Source: Synechococcus sp. UW140
GTDB lineage: Bacteria; Cyanobacteriota; Cyanobacteriia; PCC-6307; Cyanobiaceae
Reading direction: 5' to 3'
DNA length: 64,000 nt
NCBI RefSeq assembly: GCF_900474295.1
Contig: NZ_UCOB01000023.1
Span: forward strand, 1-64,000
The translations under genes were made by a program, and so were the position numbers. The notes beneath the pieces were generated by a model. It saw only the letters and a program-made list of their open reading frames with translations. It did not search any database and was not told the DNA's origin. Positions 132-14,083 of the stretch are shown here, piece after piece (position 1 is the first letter of the stretch; the number at the start of each line of letters is the position of its first letter).

Positions 132-177
132 TCTGTTGTCCGTTCGCCAGGCGAAGCGAAGCATGGGATTTGACTGC

Positions 178-241
178 TTCGCAACAGCTTGACTAGAACC
201 TGCCTGTACTTCCACCAAGGCTGTGAATTGGGCTCATCAGA
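178..241 (+). promoter_or_regulatory. Decayed TCACCAGA-type array upstream of peptide ORF 311-412
   Basis: TCATCAGA at 234 and TCCACCAA at 211 are 23 bases apart, the same spacing as the last two strong boxes of the array at 10992-11055. The box positions expected further upstream (189 and 178) hold only weak matches. The following sequence, TGTGATCTGGAAGAAGTTG (247-265), matches the block that follows the other two arrays. The distance from the last box to the ATG at 311 is 77 bases, the same as in the copy at 11048/11125. I read this as a homologous but degenerate control region. Confidence 0.5.
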
Positions 242-310
242 AGGGATGTGATCTGGAAGAAGTTGAGGGGTCACATTACACATGTCGCAGGCTTCTCTTG
301 CTGCAAGTTC

Positions 311-412
311 ATGATGACTTCGTCTCGCTCGCAGGCTGACCTCATTCCGTTGGATCAAAATTTTGAACTGGCCGACAAGGAATGCTTTGGCATTCATGGT
401 GGAGCCAATTAA
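311..412 (+). CDS. Degenerate double-glycine leader peptide
   Basis: A 33-residue ORF beginning with two consecutive ATG codons. Its end, LADKECFGIHGG followed by Ala-Asn and stop, fits the double-glycine leader pattern: Leu at -12, Ile at -4 and Gly-Gly at -2/-1. The Leu usual at -7 is Cys here, and only two residues follow the Gly-Gly, so no useful mature peptide would be released. The upstream region is homologous to that of the two better-preserved peptide genes at 1292-1450 and 11125-11271. It is most likely a decaying member of that set; a leader-only regulatory peptide is the alternative. Confidence 0.45.
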   Translation: MMTSSRSQADLIPLDQNFELADKECFGIHGGAN

Positions 413-1291: not shown

Positions 1292-1450
1292 CTAGAGATA
1301 CATGTCTTTCAACAGAGCTGGCTTACTAAAGGCACGCCCTCCGTGAATCAATTCAAGTACAGAATCATCTAGTTCGTGCTGTACCTCCTGAGCTTTGATC
1401 TTGGTTTCCTCAGCAGCGATGCAAGGATTTTTCAGTTGGAAAGTCATCAT
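1292..1450 (-). CDS. Double-glycine leader peptide (bacteriocin/microcin-like precursor)
   Basis: A 52-residue precursor starting with two ATG codons. The sequence LDDSVLELIHGG gives Leu at -12, Leu at -7, Ile at -4 and Gly-Gly at -2/-1, the classic leader recognised by C39-peptidase ABC exporters. Cleavage would release a 14-residue peptide, RAFSKPALLKDMYL. The frame stays open upstream (to 1627), but I chose this start because the leader matches the paralogue at 11125 and the upstream control array ends 72 bases before it. No C39 transporter or modification enzyme is in the window. Very short cores also occur in regulatory or modified peptides, so antimicrobial function is inference. Confidence 0.6.
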   Translation of the reverse strand: MMTFQLKNPCIAAEETKIKAQEVQHELDDSVLELIHGGRAFSKPALLKDMYL

Positions 1451-1514
1451 GGTTTGGGTCGTTGGTTGCGTGAGTGTGGGGTGTTGCCCCTCGACTCCTT
1501 CAAGATCACAGCAT

Positions 1515-1578
1515 TGCTGGTGAACCCCCGTGTGAGGCTCTGGTGAGGAGCTTTGCACTATCGGGTGAAGTTCTGGTG
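1515..1578 (-). promoter_or_regulatory. 11-bp-phased TCACCAGA box array
   Basis: Read on the minus strand, boxes begin at 1578 (TCACCAGA), 1567 (TCACCCGA), 1545 (TCACCAGA), 1534 (TCACACGG) and 1522 (TCACCAGC), giving offsets 0, 11, 33, 44 and 56. The array at 10992-11055 has its boxes at offsets 0, 11, 33 and 56. Direct repeats spaced by one helical turn are typical of sites bound side by side by winged-helix response regulators. The array is followed by TGTGATCTTGAAGGAGTCG and then the peptide start. The regulator is unknown. Confidence 0.6.
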
Positions 1579-1933
1579 AAATGCTCTCCCCTCTCCCCCT
1601 GCGCTGACGGGGCATCGCAATACACAACCGCCTGATGCAGCTTGAGCTTGGCTGAGAAGGCTTGCGTTACACCCTCGTGATGGATTCGAAGCATCCATCG
1701 ATTGACTGCTGAAAAGGCACATTTCAGCCCAGTCGTCGTAAGGGTTTTTAAGGGCATGACTGGGTTCTTAAGGCCTGCGCTCGATTGGGGTGCGACTCTG
1801 AAATGGACGTTTCTGGATACAGAAAACCAGTTGTACTCAGCTTGCTGCAGATCCACCGACTGCCTTGAGCGCAGTTGGTCTTGCACTTGCTTGGCGGCAT
1901 CTGTCTGGTCAGTGTCCCCTTGGGTGGGCACTG
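1579..1933. other. Accessory stretch without supported gene
   Basis: Overlapping frames are open on both strands. One minus-strand frame (to 1991) has a polar Gln/Asp-rich segment that could be the broken C-terminal part of the degenerate ORF at 1934-2491, but there is no motif or start signal to support it. Confidence 0.3.
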
Positions 1934-2869: not shown

Positions 2870-3090
2870 GATGGCGATTGATGGGTGCCAATGTAGTGCC
2901 TTGATGGAAGGAATTGGCCTATTGGCATTGTCGCTGAGAATCGTCCTTGCTACCGGCTGACGATCCGCGACAAAGATCTCTTTCCCAGTTCGACCCACTT
3001 CGCTTGCGCTGTTGGCATGTCGTTGATGAACCGGCAGATCTTCTGCACCTGATCGCTCAGCATCCAAGCTTTACCGTTCTTTCATTGGTG
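2870..3090 (-). pseudogene. Broken DUF1651 gene
   Basis: In one minus-strand frame the segment WMLSDQVQKICRFINDMPTA, followed by QAKWVELGKRSLS, aligns closely with WLLSIEQQKVCRFRNDMPTA, then HAKWVEVETRSLS, of the intact DUF1651 protein at 11879-12145. That frame then hits a TAG. The C-terminal half continues in another frame (RTILSDNANRPIPSIKALHW, aligning with RRMLRHNAIDAWEAMLKAGW). It is therefore a frameshifted, nonfunctional paralogue. Confidence 0.6.
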
Positions 3091-3815: not shown

Positions 3816-5297
3816 TTAGCCTGAATTGGCGTCCTTATTCATTTGTCTATCGTCTTTATGGTGCAGCTTGTCACCCATTTTTGATAAAGTTTCTCTCCAC
3901 ATGAGAATATCATAAAGATTGACGAAAAAATCGTTATTCCTTACCAGGCCCAAGTGGTTAGAGAGGAAAAATATTGCATTTTCCCATTCAATAATTGATC
4001 CTTTTTCTGGCATTTTGGTGTCTTCAATTGCATATGCACTAGCTCTTAGGACTGCCCCGTCTCCGGACTTTGTGCTCTTAAATGAAGATGACTTGGTGTC
4101 TGTATTGATATGGACTTTTGATTCTGTCGGCTCGCCAACGCCGGCAAATAAATAAAATTTAAGCCCCTTTGGGGGCTTGCTTTTTATGTCTAATCTTGAA
4201 TGGAATAATTCTGCTTTTTGCAGTAGCTGTGCTTGCAGATTTTTTGCTAAAGAGTAACGTTTCTGGCTTGTGCTAGCTGCGGGGGCAATTTGAGCAAGAA
4301 TTTTTTCTTGGTTTGGGTTGAGTATCCCCCAGCTCATTGCCTGCCATAGTTTTGGGTCAAGCAAGTTAATTTTCCCCCCTTCTTGATCTGTTACCTGAAC
4401 TATGTCTTTGCGTGGTAAGAGCTCGTACATTGATGGCATGGTTCCGAGTACGGCGGAAGGGTATTTCAGCCATTTGATTTTATCTAAATTGAAACCATTA
4501 AGGAGATTTTTTAATGCTTCGCCTGAGCCTTTATTTGGTGGGGCAACCATGATTATATTTTCGATTTTATCGCCACCTCTCCAGTCGAGTTTGGGGGCGG
4601 TTTCATTAGTCCCTAGTCCTTGGTCTCCGTATCGTAAATAGTACCTTGCTGTAAGACACCCCATCGAGTGGCAAATGATGTTAAACTTTTGCCCCTTTTT
4701 ATATAATTTCTTGCTTTCTAGTTCTTTTGATTTTGCCTTTATGAAGTTGCTTAGCTTGATGGCGCTATCAGCATTTGACTCCCGCCAGTCATAGGCGAAT
4801 TCAAACATGGGAGTGTTTGTATGTGGTTTTACTGGTCTTGTTGATTGATTGTCTTTGTGGAGTATGTATCCAGCTTTTTCGAGAGAGCTTACTACTGTTG
4901 CGTAGATTGCTAGGTCGAAAGTTGAGAATGGAAATAGGTTTATTTTTATTTGTTCAATAACAGACATGGGCTTTACTTTGTTTTTGGCCTGTCCCGAAGT
5001 AGTCGAGTTGCCTGCCAAAGGTAAGGCAAGTAATTTGTTGTCTTTTTCCGTGGAAGGCCAAAAGCTGTTGTAGCCATATGATCCCCATGCTGTTTTTCCA
5101 TTGCTCGCATCGACTAGCCTTGTTCCGCCAATTCCTGGAATAAGAATTATTGGATTTGCCTCTTTGGTGCTAGCCATGATCTCATCCATGAATGGTCCAT
5201 GGCTCGGCGAATATATGAAATTACCTCTCGAGCATGAAGAGGTGAGGCTCGCTATAAGAATGAATAAAGCAGTCTTTTTTGGAAGTTGTGCGGCCAA
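3816..5297 (-). CDS. LCAT-like alpha/beta-hydrolase lipoprotein
   Basis: A 493-residue predicted lipoprotein. A basic N terminus and hydrophobic run end in the lipobox LTSSC (Cys 22). LIPGIGGTRL (about 52-61) resembles the oxyanion-hole region of lecithin:cholesterol acyltransferase family enzymes, and AYDWR (168-172) matches their conserved YDWR. CHSMG holds the likely nucleophile Ser 211, with candidate Asp 413 (SGDGAV) and His 448 (SNHLG). The full catalytic triad is therefore present and the protein should act on lipid or ester substrates at the outer face of a membrane. The substrate is unknown. The gene is visibly more AT-rich than the core genes and stands alone in accessory DNA, suggesting horizontal transfer. 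Confidence 0.8.
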   Translation of the reverse strand: MAAQLPKKTALFILIASLTSSCSRGNFIYSPSHGPFMDEIMASTKEANPIILIPGIGGTRLVDASNGKTAWGSYGYNSFWPSTEKDNKLLALPLAGNSTTSGQAKNKVKPMSVIEQIKINLFPFSTFDLAIYATVVSSLEKAGYILHKDNQSTRPVKPHTNTPMFEFAYDWRESNADSAIKLSNFIKAKSKELESKKLYKKGQKFNIICHSMGCLTARYYLRYGDQGLGTNETAPKLDWRGGDKIENIIMVAPPNKGSGEALKNLLNGFNLDKIKWLKYPSAVLGTMPSMYELLPRKDIVQVTDQEGGKINLLDPKLWQAMSWGILNPNQEKILAQIAPAASTSQKRYSLAKNLQAQLLQKAELFHSRLDIKSKPPKGLKFYLFAGVGEPTESKVHINTDTKSSSFKSTKSGDGAVLRASAYAIEDTKMPEKGSIIEWENAIFFLSNHLGLVRNNDFFVNLYDILMWRETLSKMGDKLHHKDDRQMNKDANSG

Positions 5298-8940: not shown

Positions 8941-9021
8941 CAAAGTCACTGCGCCATCCAGGCCGGGGACGCGATGCTTAAGGCAGGCTGGAAGCGATGT
9001 GCACCACGGTGGAAATGGTGA
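8941..9021 (+). pseudogene. C-terminal remnant of a DUF1651 gene
   Basis: After an in-frame TGA (8938-8940), the frame reads QSHCAIQAGDAMLKAGWKRC, then APRWKW and stop. AMLKAGWKRCAPRW closely matches AMLKAGWQPCPPRW at the end of the intact DUF1651 protein (11879-12145). The N-terminal half is absent, so this is a truncated paralogue. Confidence 0.6.
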
Positions 9022-9579
9022 TCAATCGGCCTCAGAGCTTGCCGACCCACTGGCAGAACTTTAGGTAGGCCGGAGTTCCGATGACAACGACTGCGACTAC
9101 TGCGAGCAAGGTCATTTGACTTGTATCTGGGACCTTTCACCATCACTGTGATTGCCACCCAACTCATTGATCTGGCTCAACGGTTGCTTTGATCTTGGTC
9201 ACACCCCAACGCGTGCTGCCCAGGCATTTCATGGGATCTAACAGGATTAAGTTGTCTTCTCCCGCCGCATGAGCAGTCCAAGGGCAAGGCCGCCCGCAAT
9301 CGAATGCAGCGTGCTGCGAGCTTTGTCTACTTGGATTCGTGTGTAGGCCCTTGGTTCGCTCAAGCCAGTAGTTGTATGGCTTTTTGCTCCGGCCATTGTC
9401 GGTGAGTGAGAGCTGTCAGACAGCAATGGAGCAGAGCAGAAGGGCAGTGAGCTTTGTTTTTGGCTTCCTGTGTTCAGCCTGCGTCTAGAGGCGGGCTGAA
9501 CACATCCCCTCAATGGGGGGGGCGAGTCACCCCTCAATGCAATTTTTCGTGAGATGATTGCTTGAGATGAATTCATCAA
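9022..9579. other. Non-coding accessory stretch
   Basis: There is no supported gene. It contains the hairpin at 9472-9501 and a direct repeat of CCCCTCAATG at 9507-9516 and 9531-9540 just upstream of the gene at 9580. Confidence 0.4.
9472..9501. terminator. Inverted repeat, possible terminator
   Basis: GTTCAGCC (9472-9479) pairs with GGCTGAAC (9494-9501), and the stem can extend inward with one mismatch. There is no T tract on either side, so the role could be termination or a transcript structure upstream of 9580. Confidence 0.35.
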
Positions 9580-9879: not shown

Positions 9880-10064
9880 TCACAGACTGTCAGCGCACCC
9901 AGCCGCAATTGAGCTCCGCTCCCATGCCTCGATGGCGTTGTGGAGGTGCATTCTCGTTGGGTGCTCCGGCATTGTTGATTTGTTCGAAATAAGCTGATGC
10001 AGGCCATTTCCAGTTGAGGGACTTGGCTTGTTTGACCTACTATTCTGGGATCTCGCTTCTGTCG

Positions 10065-10529
10065 ATGAAATCTTTTCTAGCCCTAGTCTCTCTTTTGCTC
10101 TCAGCGTCTCCTGTCTTTGCTGATGACTTTGTTTATTTAAAATGTGAAAATAAGATGACGCTTATTTCCACAGAGGTGGGAACTGAGAAGCTTCTCAATA
10201 GAGAGACTAAATCAGAGACGGTCTACTTTAAAATTGATCCTGCTGGCAAAAGATTTACATCCTATAATCCTTCTTCAAGTCAACAGGTGCTCAAGTGGAA
10301 TGAGGCTGCCGTTGTGGGCGGCGCTTTAAGGGCAAGCCTTTCTGAAAACAATGAGGCTTTGCAAGTTGATGGAGAGATTGTTGTTGAGTTTCAGCCGGCG
10401 GGTAAATTGAATTCCCAGGTTTTGGCTGTTGCTTTTGGAATGATTTCGTCTGATATTGATATAGTCGGTGATTGCGTGGCTGTGGCCGAATCAGTGTTTG
10501 CAGAGGTTTTGAAGGAATCCCAAAACTGA
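10065..10529 (+). CDS. Small secreted hypothetical protein, 154 aa
   Basis: The start MKSFLALVSLLLSASPVFADD is a clear signal peptide with an Ala-x-Ala-type cleavage site (VFA). I prefer it over the in-frame start 51 bases upstream, which would bury the signal. The mature part begins FVYLKCENK and has an alternating beta pattern up to a second Cys near the end (VGDC). Only these two Cys remain after the signal, so a disulfide across the domain is likely. It shares this layout with the gene at 12802. The family is not recognised. It is more AT-rich than core genes. Confidence 0.6.
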   Translation: MKSFLALVSLLLSASPVFADDFVYLKCENKMTLISTEVGTEKLLNRETKSETVYFKIDPAGKRFTSYNPSSSQQVLKWNEAAVVGGALRASLSENNEALQVDGEIVVEFQPAGKLNSQVLAVAFGMISSDIDIVGDCVAVAESVFAEVLKESQN

Positions 10530-10576
10530 TACGCAAGGTGCTCGCCTGTGATCAGGCCACTGCGCTGAGCAGTGGA

Positions 10577-10840
10577 TTAATGAGCCTCACCCCACGTCTC
10601 AGCAACATTGCAATCTGCCTCCAAGGGAATGCCGCCGAGGTATTGATCCTTGACCTTCTGGGAGGTCATGGGCTCCAGAGCAATTCCCTTGACTTGATCC
10701 ACCAAATGCCTGGGCACTTCAAGCAGGATCTCGTCGTGGATCAATCCGACGATGTGAACACCAGGGAATGGATCTAGAGCTGGCCAGAGGTAAGCAAGTG
10801 CAGCAGCGTGAAGCGGGGCTGGCTGCACAGCTGAAGGCAT
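10577..10840 (-). pseudogene. C-terminal remnant of a family A DNA polymerase
   Basis: The sequence HIVGLIHDEILLEVP contains the motif C His-Asp-Glu of PolA-type polymerases, and the tail (YLGGIPLEADCNVAETWGEA) matches the usual end of these enzymes. Motifs A and B and the rest of the palm and fingers are absent upstream, so only about the last 85 residues survive. It cannot be a working polymerase. Such fragments are typical leftovers of phage or mobile DNA, but it could also come from a duplicated chromosomal polA. Confidence 0.75.
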
Positions 10841-10916
10841 TAGAAGACGGCGCTGGTGACCTCCAGCGCAGGGGCAGCTACCTTGTCTGAAGCCTCAAAG
10901 CGGACAGTCAGTGACA

Positions 10917-10940
10917 AAGCCCCTTCTACGAGCGGGGTTT
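10917..10940 (+). terminator. Hairpin with T tract
   Basis: AAGCCCC (10917-10923) pairs with GGGGTTT (10934-10940), with one G-T pair, and is followed by TCGTTGTC. It resembles the other GC hairpins of the accessory region. It lies between the polA remnant and the TCACCAGA array. Confidence 0.5.
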
Positions 10941-10991
10941 TCGTTGTCTTCGTGCGTTGACAGCCTAGGTGGTGAGATGGGTCTGGATCAA

Positions 10992-11055
10992 TCACCAGAG
11001 CTTCACCAGAAGCTACTGATGCAATCACCAGAACCATGCAGTGGGACTCACCAGA
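10992..11055 (+). promoter_or_regulatory. 11-bp-phased TCACCAGA box array
   Basis: Perfect TCACCAGA boxes start at 10992, 11003, 11025 and 11048, which are offsets 0, 11, 33 and 56. The minus-strand array at 1515-1578 has boxes at the same offsets. The next block, TGTGATCTTGTGAATGTCGG (11061-11080), is also shared, and the peptide ATG lies 77 bases after the last box. This fits a multi-site operator bound on one helix face. The bound protein is unknown. Confidence 0.65.
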
Positions 11056-11124
11056 AGGGGTGTGATCTTGTGAATGTCGGAGGAAACACCACCGACCCCA
11101 CACACCCAACTGACTTTTAAAACC

Positions 11125-11271
11125 ATGACTGAACTCAACATCCAAGCCCAAATCATCGAGCTGTCTGATGACCAATTAGAACTCGTCGAAGGTGGAAGTG
11201 TCGTTCGGGTCGGCTATGAAGTGGAACGATCGCACAAATTCCTAGCCAACCTGTGGCGGCAATGGAGTTGA
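11125..11271 (+). CDS. Double-glycine leader peptide (bacteriocin/microcin-like precursor)
   Basis: A 48-residue precursor, MTELNIQAQIIELSDDQLEL followed by VEGG. LSDDQLELVEGG is a textbook double-glycine leader: Leu -12, Ser -11, Leu -7, Val -4, Gly-Gly. The predicted mature peptide has 24 residues, SVVRVGYEVERSHKFLANLW and then RQWS, with net positive charge and two Trp. I start at ATG 11125 and not at the upstream in-frame ATG (11074), because that would put the leader far inside and run through the conserved untranslated block. Processing would need a C39-peptidase ABC exporter, which is not in the window. It has no Cys, so lanthipeptide-type rings are excluded. Confidence 0.7.
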   Translation: MTELNIQAQIIELSDDQLELVEGGSVVRVGYEVERSHKFLANLWRQWS

Positions 11272-11346
11272 ACGATCTATCTCTCCTGCAATTCGAATGG
11301 GCGAATAGTTGTCGGCGGACGCTACCCCTGGCAATGATCCCTCACC

Positions 11347-11371
11347 AGCCCCGCCAAAAGTGGGGTTTTTT
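11347..11371 (+). terminator. Rho-independent terminator after the peptide gene
   Basis: CCCC (11349-11352) pairs with GGGG (11362-11365), with adjacent weak pairs, around GCCAAAAGT. It is followed by six T (11366-11371) and GTTGCC. It is the best terminator of the accessory hairpin family and probably ends the 11125-11271 transcript. Confidence 0.65.
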
Positions 11372-11465
11372 GTTGCCTGCTCGGTAGTAACCCCAGCCCC
11401 CTCAATCCTGCGGATCGACTTGGCTGAAGGGATAGGAGCGCACTTCTTATTGGCTTTGCTGAGAT

Positions 11466-11878: not shown

Positions 11879-12145
11879 TCACCACCGTGGCGGGCACGGT
11901 TGCCAGCCTGCCTTCAGCATCGCTTCCCAGGCATCGATCGCGTTGTGGCGCAACATACGCCTAATGATCGGGCGGCCTTTCGCAGACAGTGATCTGGTCT
12001 CGACTTCCACCCACTTCGCATGGGCTGTAGGCATGTCATTCCTGAACCGGCAGACCTTCTGTTGCTCAATACTCAGCAGCCAGCCTTCCCCGTTCTTCGG
12101 TGCGTGGCGATCAACGAGCGGGCGGTCCTTGCTTGGCATCCCCAC
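11879..12145 (-). CDS. DUF1651 family protein
   Basis: An 88-residue protein with the DUF1651 layout: GEGWLLSIEQQKVCRF near residue 20, a central MPTAHAKWVEVETRSLSAKG, then RRMLRHNAIDAWEAMLKAGW and the terminal QPCPPRW. From memory, this family is common and multicopy in marine Synechococcus and Prochlorococcus; its function is unknown. Two broken relatives lie in the same window (2870-3090, 8941-9021), so this is the surviving copy. No partner gene is evident. It has no membrane segments. Confidence 0.7.
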   Translation of the reverse strand: MGMPSKDRPLVDRHAPKNGEGWLLSIEQQKVCRFRNDMPTAHAKWVEVETRSLSAKGRPIIRRMLRHNAIDAWEAMLKAGWQPCPPRW

Positions 12146-12186
12146 AGGATGGCGAAACAGCCTTGGCTGCTGGGAGCACTGAAAAA

Positions 12187-12202
12187 TCCCCCATTTGGGG
12201 GA
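12187..12202 (-). terminator. 16-bp palindrome, copy 2, terminator on the minus strand
   Basis: TCCCCCATTTGGGGGA is the second copy of the palindrome at 11709. Read on the minus strand it is followed by TTTTTC, so it can act as a rho-independent terminator for transcripts entering from the right. Confidence 0.5.
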
Positions 12203-12424
12203 TGTGGGATGTGAGGAGTGAGGTCTGCCCTCAAATCAACTCTCCTGCCAGGCTTCGTCTACATGGCTCCCAAGTTCATGCCTAGAAGGCCCAGAAGGAC
12301 TCCTGGAATTGTTACGGGGATCTTGAACCTGGAGGGAAGGGAGAATTGCTCTCTATGAGCGGCAATACAGGCCTAGTAGCGAATTTCCTCTCCATTGCTA
12401 GAAATGTTGGTACCACTGGTTTCT

Positions 12425-13648: not shown

Positions 13649-13784
13649 TGACTTGAATATGCGAAGAGCAGAGCCGAAGGAGTTCAGCTAATGCACTCAA
13701 GATCTCTTTGATCCATAAATTAGTTGATGAGGCGTGTCTCAGGCCTTAGTGATATTGGTCAAAGATGATGCCAGGTCATCAAAA

Positions 13785-13803
13785 GCCCCGCACTTGGCGG
13801 GGC
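13785..13803. terminator. GC hairpin, terminator-like
   Basis: GCCCCGC (13785-13791) and GCGGGGC (13797-13803) form a perfect stem with a 5-base loop, preceded by AAAA, so the minus strand reads into TTTTGATG. It is nearly identical to the hairpin at 1228-1246. Confidence 0.5.
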
Positions 13804-14083
13804 GTGATTGGTGTGAGGTGTTTTGTCGGGAGATCGATAGCGACTACTCAACGCCCCCTGCTTTTCTCTCTGATGCCCGGTCCCAGGGTATTGACGCGGC
13901 CAATTCAGAAGGCTGGCTGCAAAACTATAAGGAGCGCCTTGTGGTGCGGTTCTGGCCAAGGCGCACAACAACCCTGGAGCAGTCGTGGCCTTCATCCTTT
14001 CTGGCTGAAGGTCTTCAGGACTGTGCCCGCGAAATTTCAGCGTCATCCCAGGGATTGTTTGTACGCACAAAAAAAGATCAAAC
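13804..14083. other. Accessory stretch left of tRNA-Arg, no supported gene
   Basis: The plus-strand frame ending at 14087 has a plausible-looking stretch (SEGWLQNYKERLVVRFWPRR), but it runs through the 13785-13803 hairpin and lacks a start signal. It might be a gene fragment; I cannot name it. No integrase-like motif is visible. Confidence 0.3.

What the first reader, a model, noticed from the sequence alone, without database searches (positions are those of the whole stretch)
10992..11271. Double-glycine peptide gene behind an 11-bp-phased TCACCAGA array
Perfect TCACCAGA boxes start at 10992, 11003, 11025 and 11048 (offsets 0, 11, 33, 56), all close to one helical turn apart, then a shared TGTGATCTTG block, then a 48-residue precursor with the leader LSDDQLELVEGG and a 24-residue Cys-free cationic core. 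A C39-type exporter peptide under a multi-site operator in a marine picocyanobacterium would be a distinct, inducible peptide system. The box sequence does not match the Pho, NtcA or Fur sites I know.
Basis: partly seen in the sequence, partly recalled or inferred. Interest (0 to 1): 0.8.

Follow-up and report, generated by a model that had tools for sequence, protein, structure and literature searches.

The report
Shared switch for secreted cyanobacterial peptides
The repeated DNA boxes in front of this small peptide gene are part of a control element, copied about thirty times in some marine cyanobacterial genomes, that sits in front of many different secreted peptides and appears to belong to one sensor system, so it may explain how these ocean microbes switch on their poorly understood exported peptides.

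Summary
The array is real and beyond chance. It belongs to a ~150-bp promoter/5'UTR module. The window holds three copies: the finding, a second at 1579-1501 (-) with the same spacing, and an eroded third at 172-276. Downstream genes are mostly double-glycine peptides (85 of 137 unique modules), including Nif11/prochlorosin-type ones, plus Sec-like small proteins and some larger repeat proteins.

An OmpR/PhoB-type response regulator with its sensor kinase (12 of 13 times also a PhnD-like lipoprotein) occurs in 13 of 99 genomes; 12 of these carry the module. Among 76 good genomes 10 have both, 65 neither, one (G009) the module alone. In 8 of 13 loci an array lies in or beside the sensor genes; in G054 the genome's only exact double box lies between lipoprotein and kinase genes.

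Best reading: the regulator binds TCACCAGA direct repeats, 11 bp apart as in PhoP boxes, and controls a scattered regulon of exported peptides. Binding, direction of control and signal are inferred. The window's own core is rearranged and may be decaying. Eight literature searches found no description.

The parts
10992..10999 (+). operator box 1 (offset 0)
   Evidence: column conservation over 82 sites
11003..11010 (+). operator box 2 (offset 11)
11025..11032 (+). operator box 3 (offset 33; NCACCAGA in the family)
11048..11055 (+). operator box 4 (offset 56)
11061..11070 (+). TGTGATCTTG block at +69, read here as an extended -10 element (inference)
   Evidence: conserved at +69 in 82 sites; no sigma-70 consensus found nearby (weak evidence)
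11076..11096 (+). 5'UTR hairpin at the predicted RNA start (inference)
   Evidence: fold, z -1.83; mean z -1.53 over 137 modules
11125..11271 (+). 48-aa double-glycine precursor; leader 11125-11196, core 11197-11268
   Evidence: leader DNA 93% identical over 76 nt to G018 copies
11211..11277 (+). 46-bp-spaced imperfect duplication that remodels the core
11347..11372 (+). intrinsic terminator-like hairpin with T run
1516..1579 (-). second array, offsets 0, 11, 33, 56 (degenerate box also at 44)
1501..1510 (-). TGTGATCTTG block of the second module
1292..1450 (-). 52-aa GG-leader peptide MMTFQLK...ELIHGG
172..276 (+). third, eroded module (48.4 bits)
311..412 (+). 33-aa GG leader with a core of two residues behind the eroded module
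   Evidence: read by eye

Best explanation
The TCACCAGA array is the operator of an OmpR/PhoB-family response regulator belonging to a three-part signalling system: a PhnD-like periplasmic lipoprotein, a membrane histidine kinase and the response regulator. On signal, regulator dimers bind the 11-bp-spaced direct repeats (up to six half-sites) upstream of a weak extended -10 element and switch on one-gene units scattered through the genome. Their products are secreted: double-glycine peptides (probably through C39 exporters), Nif11/prochlorosin-type precursors, Sec-like small proteins and a few large repeat proteins. The window's peptide is one member, possibly decaying. Shown: the array, the shared module, the target classes, the co-occurrence, and the array inside or beside the sensor locus. 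Inferred: binding, activation rather than repression, the -10 and start site, export, and the signal (the ligand of a phosphonate-binding-type protein).
For: Module conserved in 15 of 99 genomes in front of unrelated genes; GG label 89 of 137 (85 after checking by eye) against 69 of 2000 random starts. Regulator and kinase in the same 13 of 99 genomes, 12 of them with the module; 10 both, 1 module only, 65 neither among 76 good genomes (tallies). A genome outside the first sample, G360 of another genus, also has both. Arrays in or beside the system in 8 of 13 loci; in G054 the only exact double box of the genome lies between lipoprotein and kinase genes; in G020 two of three lie within 3 kb of the regulator. 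The regulator has a Trans_reg_C domain; a solved relative, PhoP, reads TCACAGC repeats with the same 11-bp period, and its TCAC-side contact residues N, V, Y, Y are kept here.
Against: No binding or expression data. G009 (99% complete) has 3 modules and no such system; G227 has two weak matches and none; G003, G022 and G185 (74-80% complete) have modules without it. G014 and G163 (63 and 82% complete) have the kinase and no module. The window's own genome, G011, G014, G018 and G025 have no array at the sensor locus as fetched. A second regulator of the genome also has N, V, Y, Y in its helix. G020 lacks the PhnD-like gene and any C39 match. Tree-aware contrasts all point the same way or are neutral but are too few for significance.
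Confidence: 0.78

Rival explanations
1. The array is the operator of a different, more widely held OmpR/PhoB-type regulator; the PhnD-kinase-regulator system is only one of its targets or travels in the same genomes.
For: Ten Trans_reg_C proteins in the genome, one other with the same N, V, Y, Y helix residues; G009 keeps modules without the system.
Against: Regulator and kinase track the module in 12 of 13 genomes; arrays cluster at this locus in 8 of 13.
Confidence: 0.12
2. The modules look alike mainly because a promoter-plus-leader cassette is copied around the genome; the boxes have no common regulator any more.
For: Spacer sequence between boxes is also conserved; leaders are near identical while cores differ; some copies are eroded.
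Against: The same module precedes unrelated coding sequences, and box-only arrays without the rest of the module sit at the kinase genes.
Confidence: 0.06
3. The repeats act in the RNA, as a leader element with repeated UCACCAGA sites.
For: The 5'UTR part forms a favoured hairpin with modest covariation.
Against: The RNAalifold consensus is -1.3 kcal/mol with no compensatory pair; no Rfam match over the array at gathering level or at E 0.5; the 11-bp phase fits the DNA helix.
Confidence: 0.03
4. The array is a chance cluster.
For: Single boxes occur elsewhere in the window.
Against: 5 paired matches against 0.04 expected and conservation in 15 of 99 genomes.
Confidence: 0.01

Closest known systems
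M. tuberculosis PhoP and its direct-repeat box (OmpR/PhoB family)
   Same: TCAC core and 11-bp repeat period; three or four repeats bind better than two (PMC4832192, passages); related regulator
   Different: Box is TCACCAGA, not TCACAGC; other organism and targets; binding untested here
AioX-AioS-AioR three-gene sensing systems (PhnD-like periplasmic protein, kinase, regulator)
   Same: A PhnD-fold periplasmic protein feeds a sensor kinase and a regulator (PMC5908839, passages)
   Different: AioR acts upstream of an RpoN promoter on arsenite oxidase genes (same passages); here the regulator is Trans_reg_C type and the targets are peptides
Plantaricin PlnC/PlnD bacteriocin regulon of Lactobacillus plantarum
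   Same: Response regulators bind repeats in front of bacteriocin genes (PMC2714321, abstract start in search listing)
   Different: Quorum-sensing pathway in a Gram-positive; the regulator family there is LytTR-type (recalled)
Prochlorosins and other RiPP precursors of marine picocyanobacteria
   Same: Nif11-type GG precursors are among the module's targets
   Different: The window's peptide is short-leader and Cys-free; the regulon is not described in the passages seen (PMC10783134)
EbfG small secreted proteins of Synechococcus elongatus
   Same: Small GG-motif secreted proteins in a cyanobacterium, with a role in biofilms (PMC4997328, abstract start in search listing)
   Different: No sequence comparison was made; control appears different but was not tested

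Membership tests
OmpR/PhoB-type operator | Direct repeats of 10-11 bp period | tested here: met
   Boxes at 0, 11, 33, 56; six at 0-55 in G020
OmpR/PhoB-type operator | Bound by a cognate regulator | not testable with these tools
   Only co-occurrence and linkage
OmpR/PhoB response regulator | Receiver plus Trans_reg_C domain | tested here: met
   107.1 and 100.1 bits, cut-offs 30.2 and 26.2
PhnD-like periplasmic binding protein | Phosphonate-bd domain | tested here: met
   106.6 bits, cut-off 27; lipobox-position Cys invariant in 10 of 10 aligned
PhnD-like periplasmic binding protein | Binds a phosphonate or related oxyanion | not testable with these tools
   Ligand unknown
Double-glycine (C39-exported) peptide | Leader ending in GG after a conserved acidic/hydrophobic stretch | tested here: met
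   MTELNIQAQIIELSDDQLELVEGG
Double-glycine (C39-exported) peptide | C39 exporter in the genome | tested here: met
   Three loci in G000, none next to this gene
Pfam Bacteriocin_IIc | Score above the curated cut-off | tested here: not met
   12.9 bits against 27.1
Prochlorosin/Nif11 lanthipeptide precursor (the window's peptide) | Nif11 leader and Cys in the core | tested here: not met
   No Nif11 match; no Cys in the core
Cyanobacterial Pho regulon | Pho-box sequence | not tested
   Box recalled as CTTAACCT-type repeats, unlike TCACCAGA; no Pho-box model was run

The most novel reading that the evidence does not exclude
One dedicated sensor system, reading a small molecule through a PhnD-like lipoprotein, commands a large share of the fast-diversifying secreted small peptides (short GG peptides, prochlorosin-type precursors and Sec-exported micro-proteins) in a subset of marine Synechococcus and Prochlorococcus, through a copied promoter-plus-leader cassette whose cores are free to change.
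Probability: 0.6. Interest if true: 0.85.

Novelty: new variant of a known kind. Interest (0 to 1): 0.75.

Why it matters
The role and control of picocyanobacterial RiPP-type peptides is open: PMC10783134 says the function of prochlorosins remains a mystery and only notes sensor kinases and regulators in some clusters (passages). A shared operator and a candidate regulator turn this into a direct test: delete or activate one system and follow dozens of peptides at once. The module is also a DNA signature for finding unannotated short secreted peptides, and the ligand of the sensor protein would tell when cells deploy them.

Tried and rejected
RNA riboregulator: RNAalifold on the 48-row alignment gave -1.3 kcal/mol and no compensatory pair. 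A hand-placed 5-pair UTR hairpin has modest covariation and folds below shuffles (mean z -1.53 over 137; three control stretches of 46 modules each gave 0.64, -0.28 and 0.08). It is kept as a minor part only.

Chance: rejected. Viral spread: the strict module pattern has 0 matches in viral contigs, and the peptide has no match in phage records at E 0.01. Pfam bacteriocin family: below cut-off. Named genomes: the strict pattern gave 18 stretches in genome contigs, from Prochlorococcus MIT 0701, Synechococcus UW105, three single-cell genomes and one MAG; these loci (L124-L141) were left out of the 137-module catalogue.

Literature: eight searches showed no description of the box or regulon in their listings. 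The six papers holding TCACCAGA and Synechococcus look unrelated from titles and abstract starts. Five papers were opened, for passages only; the last, on CC9311 stress transcripts, could not be tied to these genes. Preprints and most subscription papers are not held.

Rows dropped or changed: G029 has two topoisomerase copies and was left out of the tree; G005, G014, G022 and G026 had no marker match. Four of 89 script-labelled GG targets were relabelled Sec-like by eye (L018, L050, L054, L199). L022, a kinase promoter, was dropped from the module alignment (49 to 48 rows). The 137 are unique modules in fetched loci, not all 187 model matches; the scan asked for CACC in at least one of three boxes, and its matrix was trained on 82 of the sites. 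Five class-level genomes among the 19 (G069, G085, G090, G091, G098) look like chance and are not in the module count. NCBIfam was tried once (failed) and not run again.

Full report
What is there. The four boxes, the block and the peptide are at the stated places. Paired boxes are far beyond chance in the window (5 against 0.04). The same architecture recurs on the minus strand at 1579-1501, with offsets 0, 11, 33, 56 and TGTGATCTTG at +69, followed by another GG-leader peptide. A third, eroded copy at 172-276 precedes a GG leader with almost no core. In the window's own genome the module model lists 16 matches at E<=1. The five strongest precede four GG peptides (C6:170220, C29:248138, C6:1444, C6:10982) and a protein of about 1147 residues with an RTX repeat (C20:36574); a weak one (C14:14065) precedes a small protein with a signal-like start.

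The module. An exact 11-bp double box occurs in 19 of 99 genomes (the window's own included), 14 of them in its family; the reversed-pattern control rings once in the genus (G030) and once more in the family (G034). Over 82 sites the boxes stand at 0, 11, 33 and 56, the block at +69, then AAGGAGTCGAGGGGGCAACACC. In the 137-module catalogue CACC is present at the four box places in 129-132 modules, but at offset 23 in 1 and at 45 in 0. G020 has all six half-sites at 0/11/22/33/44/55 in its three copies, and the kinase promoters of G010, G015 and G054 have three in a row. I read the array as up to three direct-repeat pairs. The sequence-only model finds it in 15 of 99 genomes at E<=1e-4, 187 matches summed from the rows: G000 8, G002 5, G003 1, G009 3, G010 25, G011 14, G015 12, G016 31, G018 21, G020 3, G022 3, G024 30, G025 4, G054 6, G059 21. 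At most 31 candidates per genome were scored, so G016 is a lower bound.

The targets. Sites were picked by DNA alone. Of 137 unique modules the script labels 89 GG, 22 Sec-like, 20 other and 6 none; by eye four of the GG labels are Sec-like, leaving 85. Random starts in the same loci give GG in 69 of 2000. The GG group holds short leaders like the window's and Nif11-type ones (one tested, Nif11 49.7 bits against 23.8). Small proteins with signal-like starts form at least two further families by eye, and G020's targets include RTX-like and multi-GG proteins. Leaders are kept while cores change: the window's leader DNA is 93% identical over 76 nt to G018 copies. One module thus precedes unrelated coding sequences, as in a regulon.

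The candidate regulator. Two array hits led to one locus: a response regulator divergent from a PhnD-like lipoprotein gene and a sensor kinase gene, with the array between the last two (L037, L038). The kinase is found at E<=1e-80 in 13 of 99 genomes. The regulator at 68-100% identity is in the same 13; six other genomes of the class match at 47-49%. The PhnD-like gene matches strongly (E<=4.5e-44) in 12 of the 13, not in G020; weak matches to its family are common (65 of 99 at 1e-5). Twelve of the 13 carry the module; G014 (63% complete) does not. Among the 76 good genomes of that sample 10 have both, 1 the module only (G009), 65 neither (tallies); by my count 40 of the 76 are of the same family. 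In 400 family genomes the kinase is in 15 and the module in 18, 13 with both; kinase only: G014, G163; module only: G003, G009, G022, G185, G227. G360, of another genus and outside the first sample, has both. Fisher p values of 1.3e-8 (40 genomes) and 2.9e-16 (251 genomes) ignore kinship. On a topoisomerase tree of 26 genus members each trait changes 5-6 times; 4-5 independent contrasts on well-supported branches go the same way or are neutral, none the other way, too few for significance. G001 lacks both inside a supported clade of carriers.

Linkage. Arrays lie in or beside the system in 8 of 13 fetched loci (G002, G010, G015, G016, G020, G024, G054, G059) and not in G000, G011, G014, G018, G025; the G011 stretch did not reach its regulator. 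G054's only exact double box is inside the locus, though the model lists 6 matches in G054 at E<=1e-4. In G020 two of three lie within 3 kb of the regulator. G009, the clear exception, keeps modules almost identical to G025's; of the two compared, one target has a 2-base deletion relative to G025, while the other's coding part did not align to the G025 copy chosen. This is compatible with recent loss of the system.

How it may bind. The regulator has receiver and winged-helix domains; its nearest solved relatives include PrrA, MtrA and PhoP. PhoP reads TCACAGC repeats with a strict 4-bp spacer, an 11-bp period, and three or four repeats bind better than two. The residues that touch the TCAC side (Asn212, Val213, Tyr217, Tyr220) are N, V, Y, Y here. 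In 11 of 12 regulators read the helix is the same apart from D/E and K/R swaps; G020 has F for the first Y. Among ten Trans_reg_C proteins of the genome this one is closest to PhoP's helix (11 of 17), but a second also has N, V, Y, Y. No sigma-70 consensus lies nearby (0 found, 0.2 expected, so weak evidence). I read TGTGATCTT as an extended -10, which would start the RNA near +84, at the favoured hairpin. These last steps are inference.

The window's copy. The unit closes with a terminator-like hairpin at 11347-11372. The core has a 46-bp imperfect duplication and indels relative to a G018 peptide, whose end is still readable after the window's stop codon. It is either remodelled or decaying. 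Export is plausible: three C39 loci exist in the genome, but none was tied to this leader. C39 matches occur in 43 of 61 genomes searched, with and without the module, and G020, a module carrier, has none, so C39 cannot be the route for every target.

Verdict. The parts are of known kinds (OmpR-type operators, PhnD-like three-part sensing, GG peptides); their combination did not appear in the eight searches made.

Noticed in passing
window 11879-12145 (-); related DNA at 8952-9117 and 2989-3081: A DUF1651 gene (40.6 bits, cut-off 22) whose DNA recurs in the window and in 20 of the fetched loci, often near modules: a dispersed small gene family of these genomic regions.
   Followed up: partly
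window 10577-10840 (-): An 87-aa frame resembling the C-terminal end of DNA polymerase family A (26.9 bits, below the cut-off 34.3), a possible gene remnant next to the array.
   Followed up: partly
window 13783-13851 and 12185-12232 (-): Two weak Yfr1 sRNA-like matches (26.2 and 23.5 bits, below the gathering score 38).
   Followed up: no
window 3819-5297 (-): A possible lipoprotein with an LCAT/lipase-type domain (51.8 bits, cut-off 21).
   Followed up: no
L110:8613-9410 and 9985-11343 (G020): Both arrays near the G020 regulator precede larger frames, one with RTX-like repeats and one with repeated GG segments (read by eye), rather than small GG peptides.
   Followed up: no
L182 (G009) against L181 (G025): In the genome that has modules but no sensor system, one target carries a 2-base deletion under an intact promoter module: a possible natural loss experiment.
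   Followed up: partly
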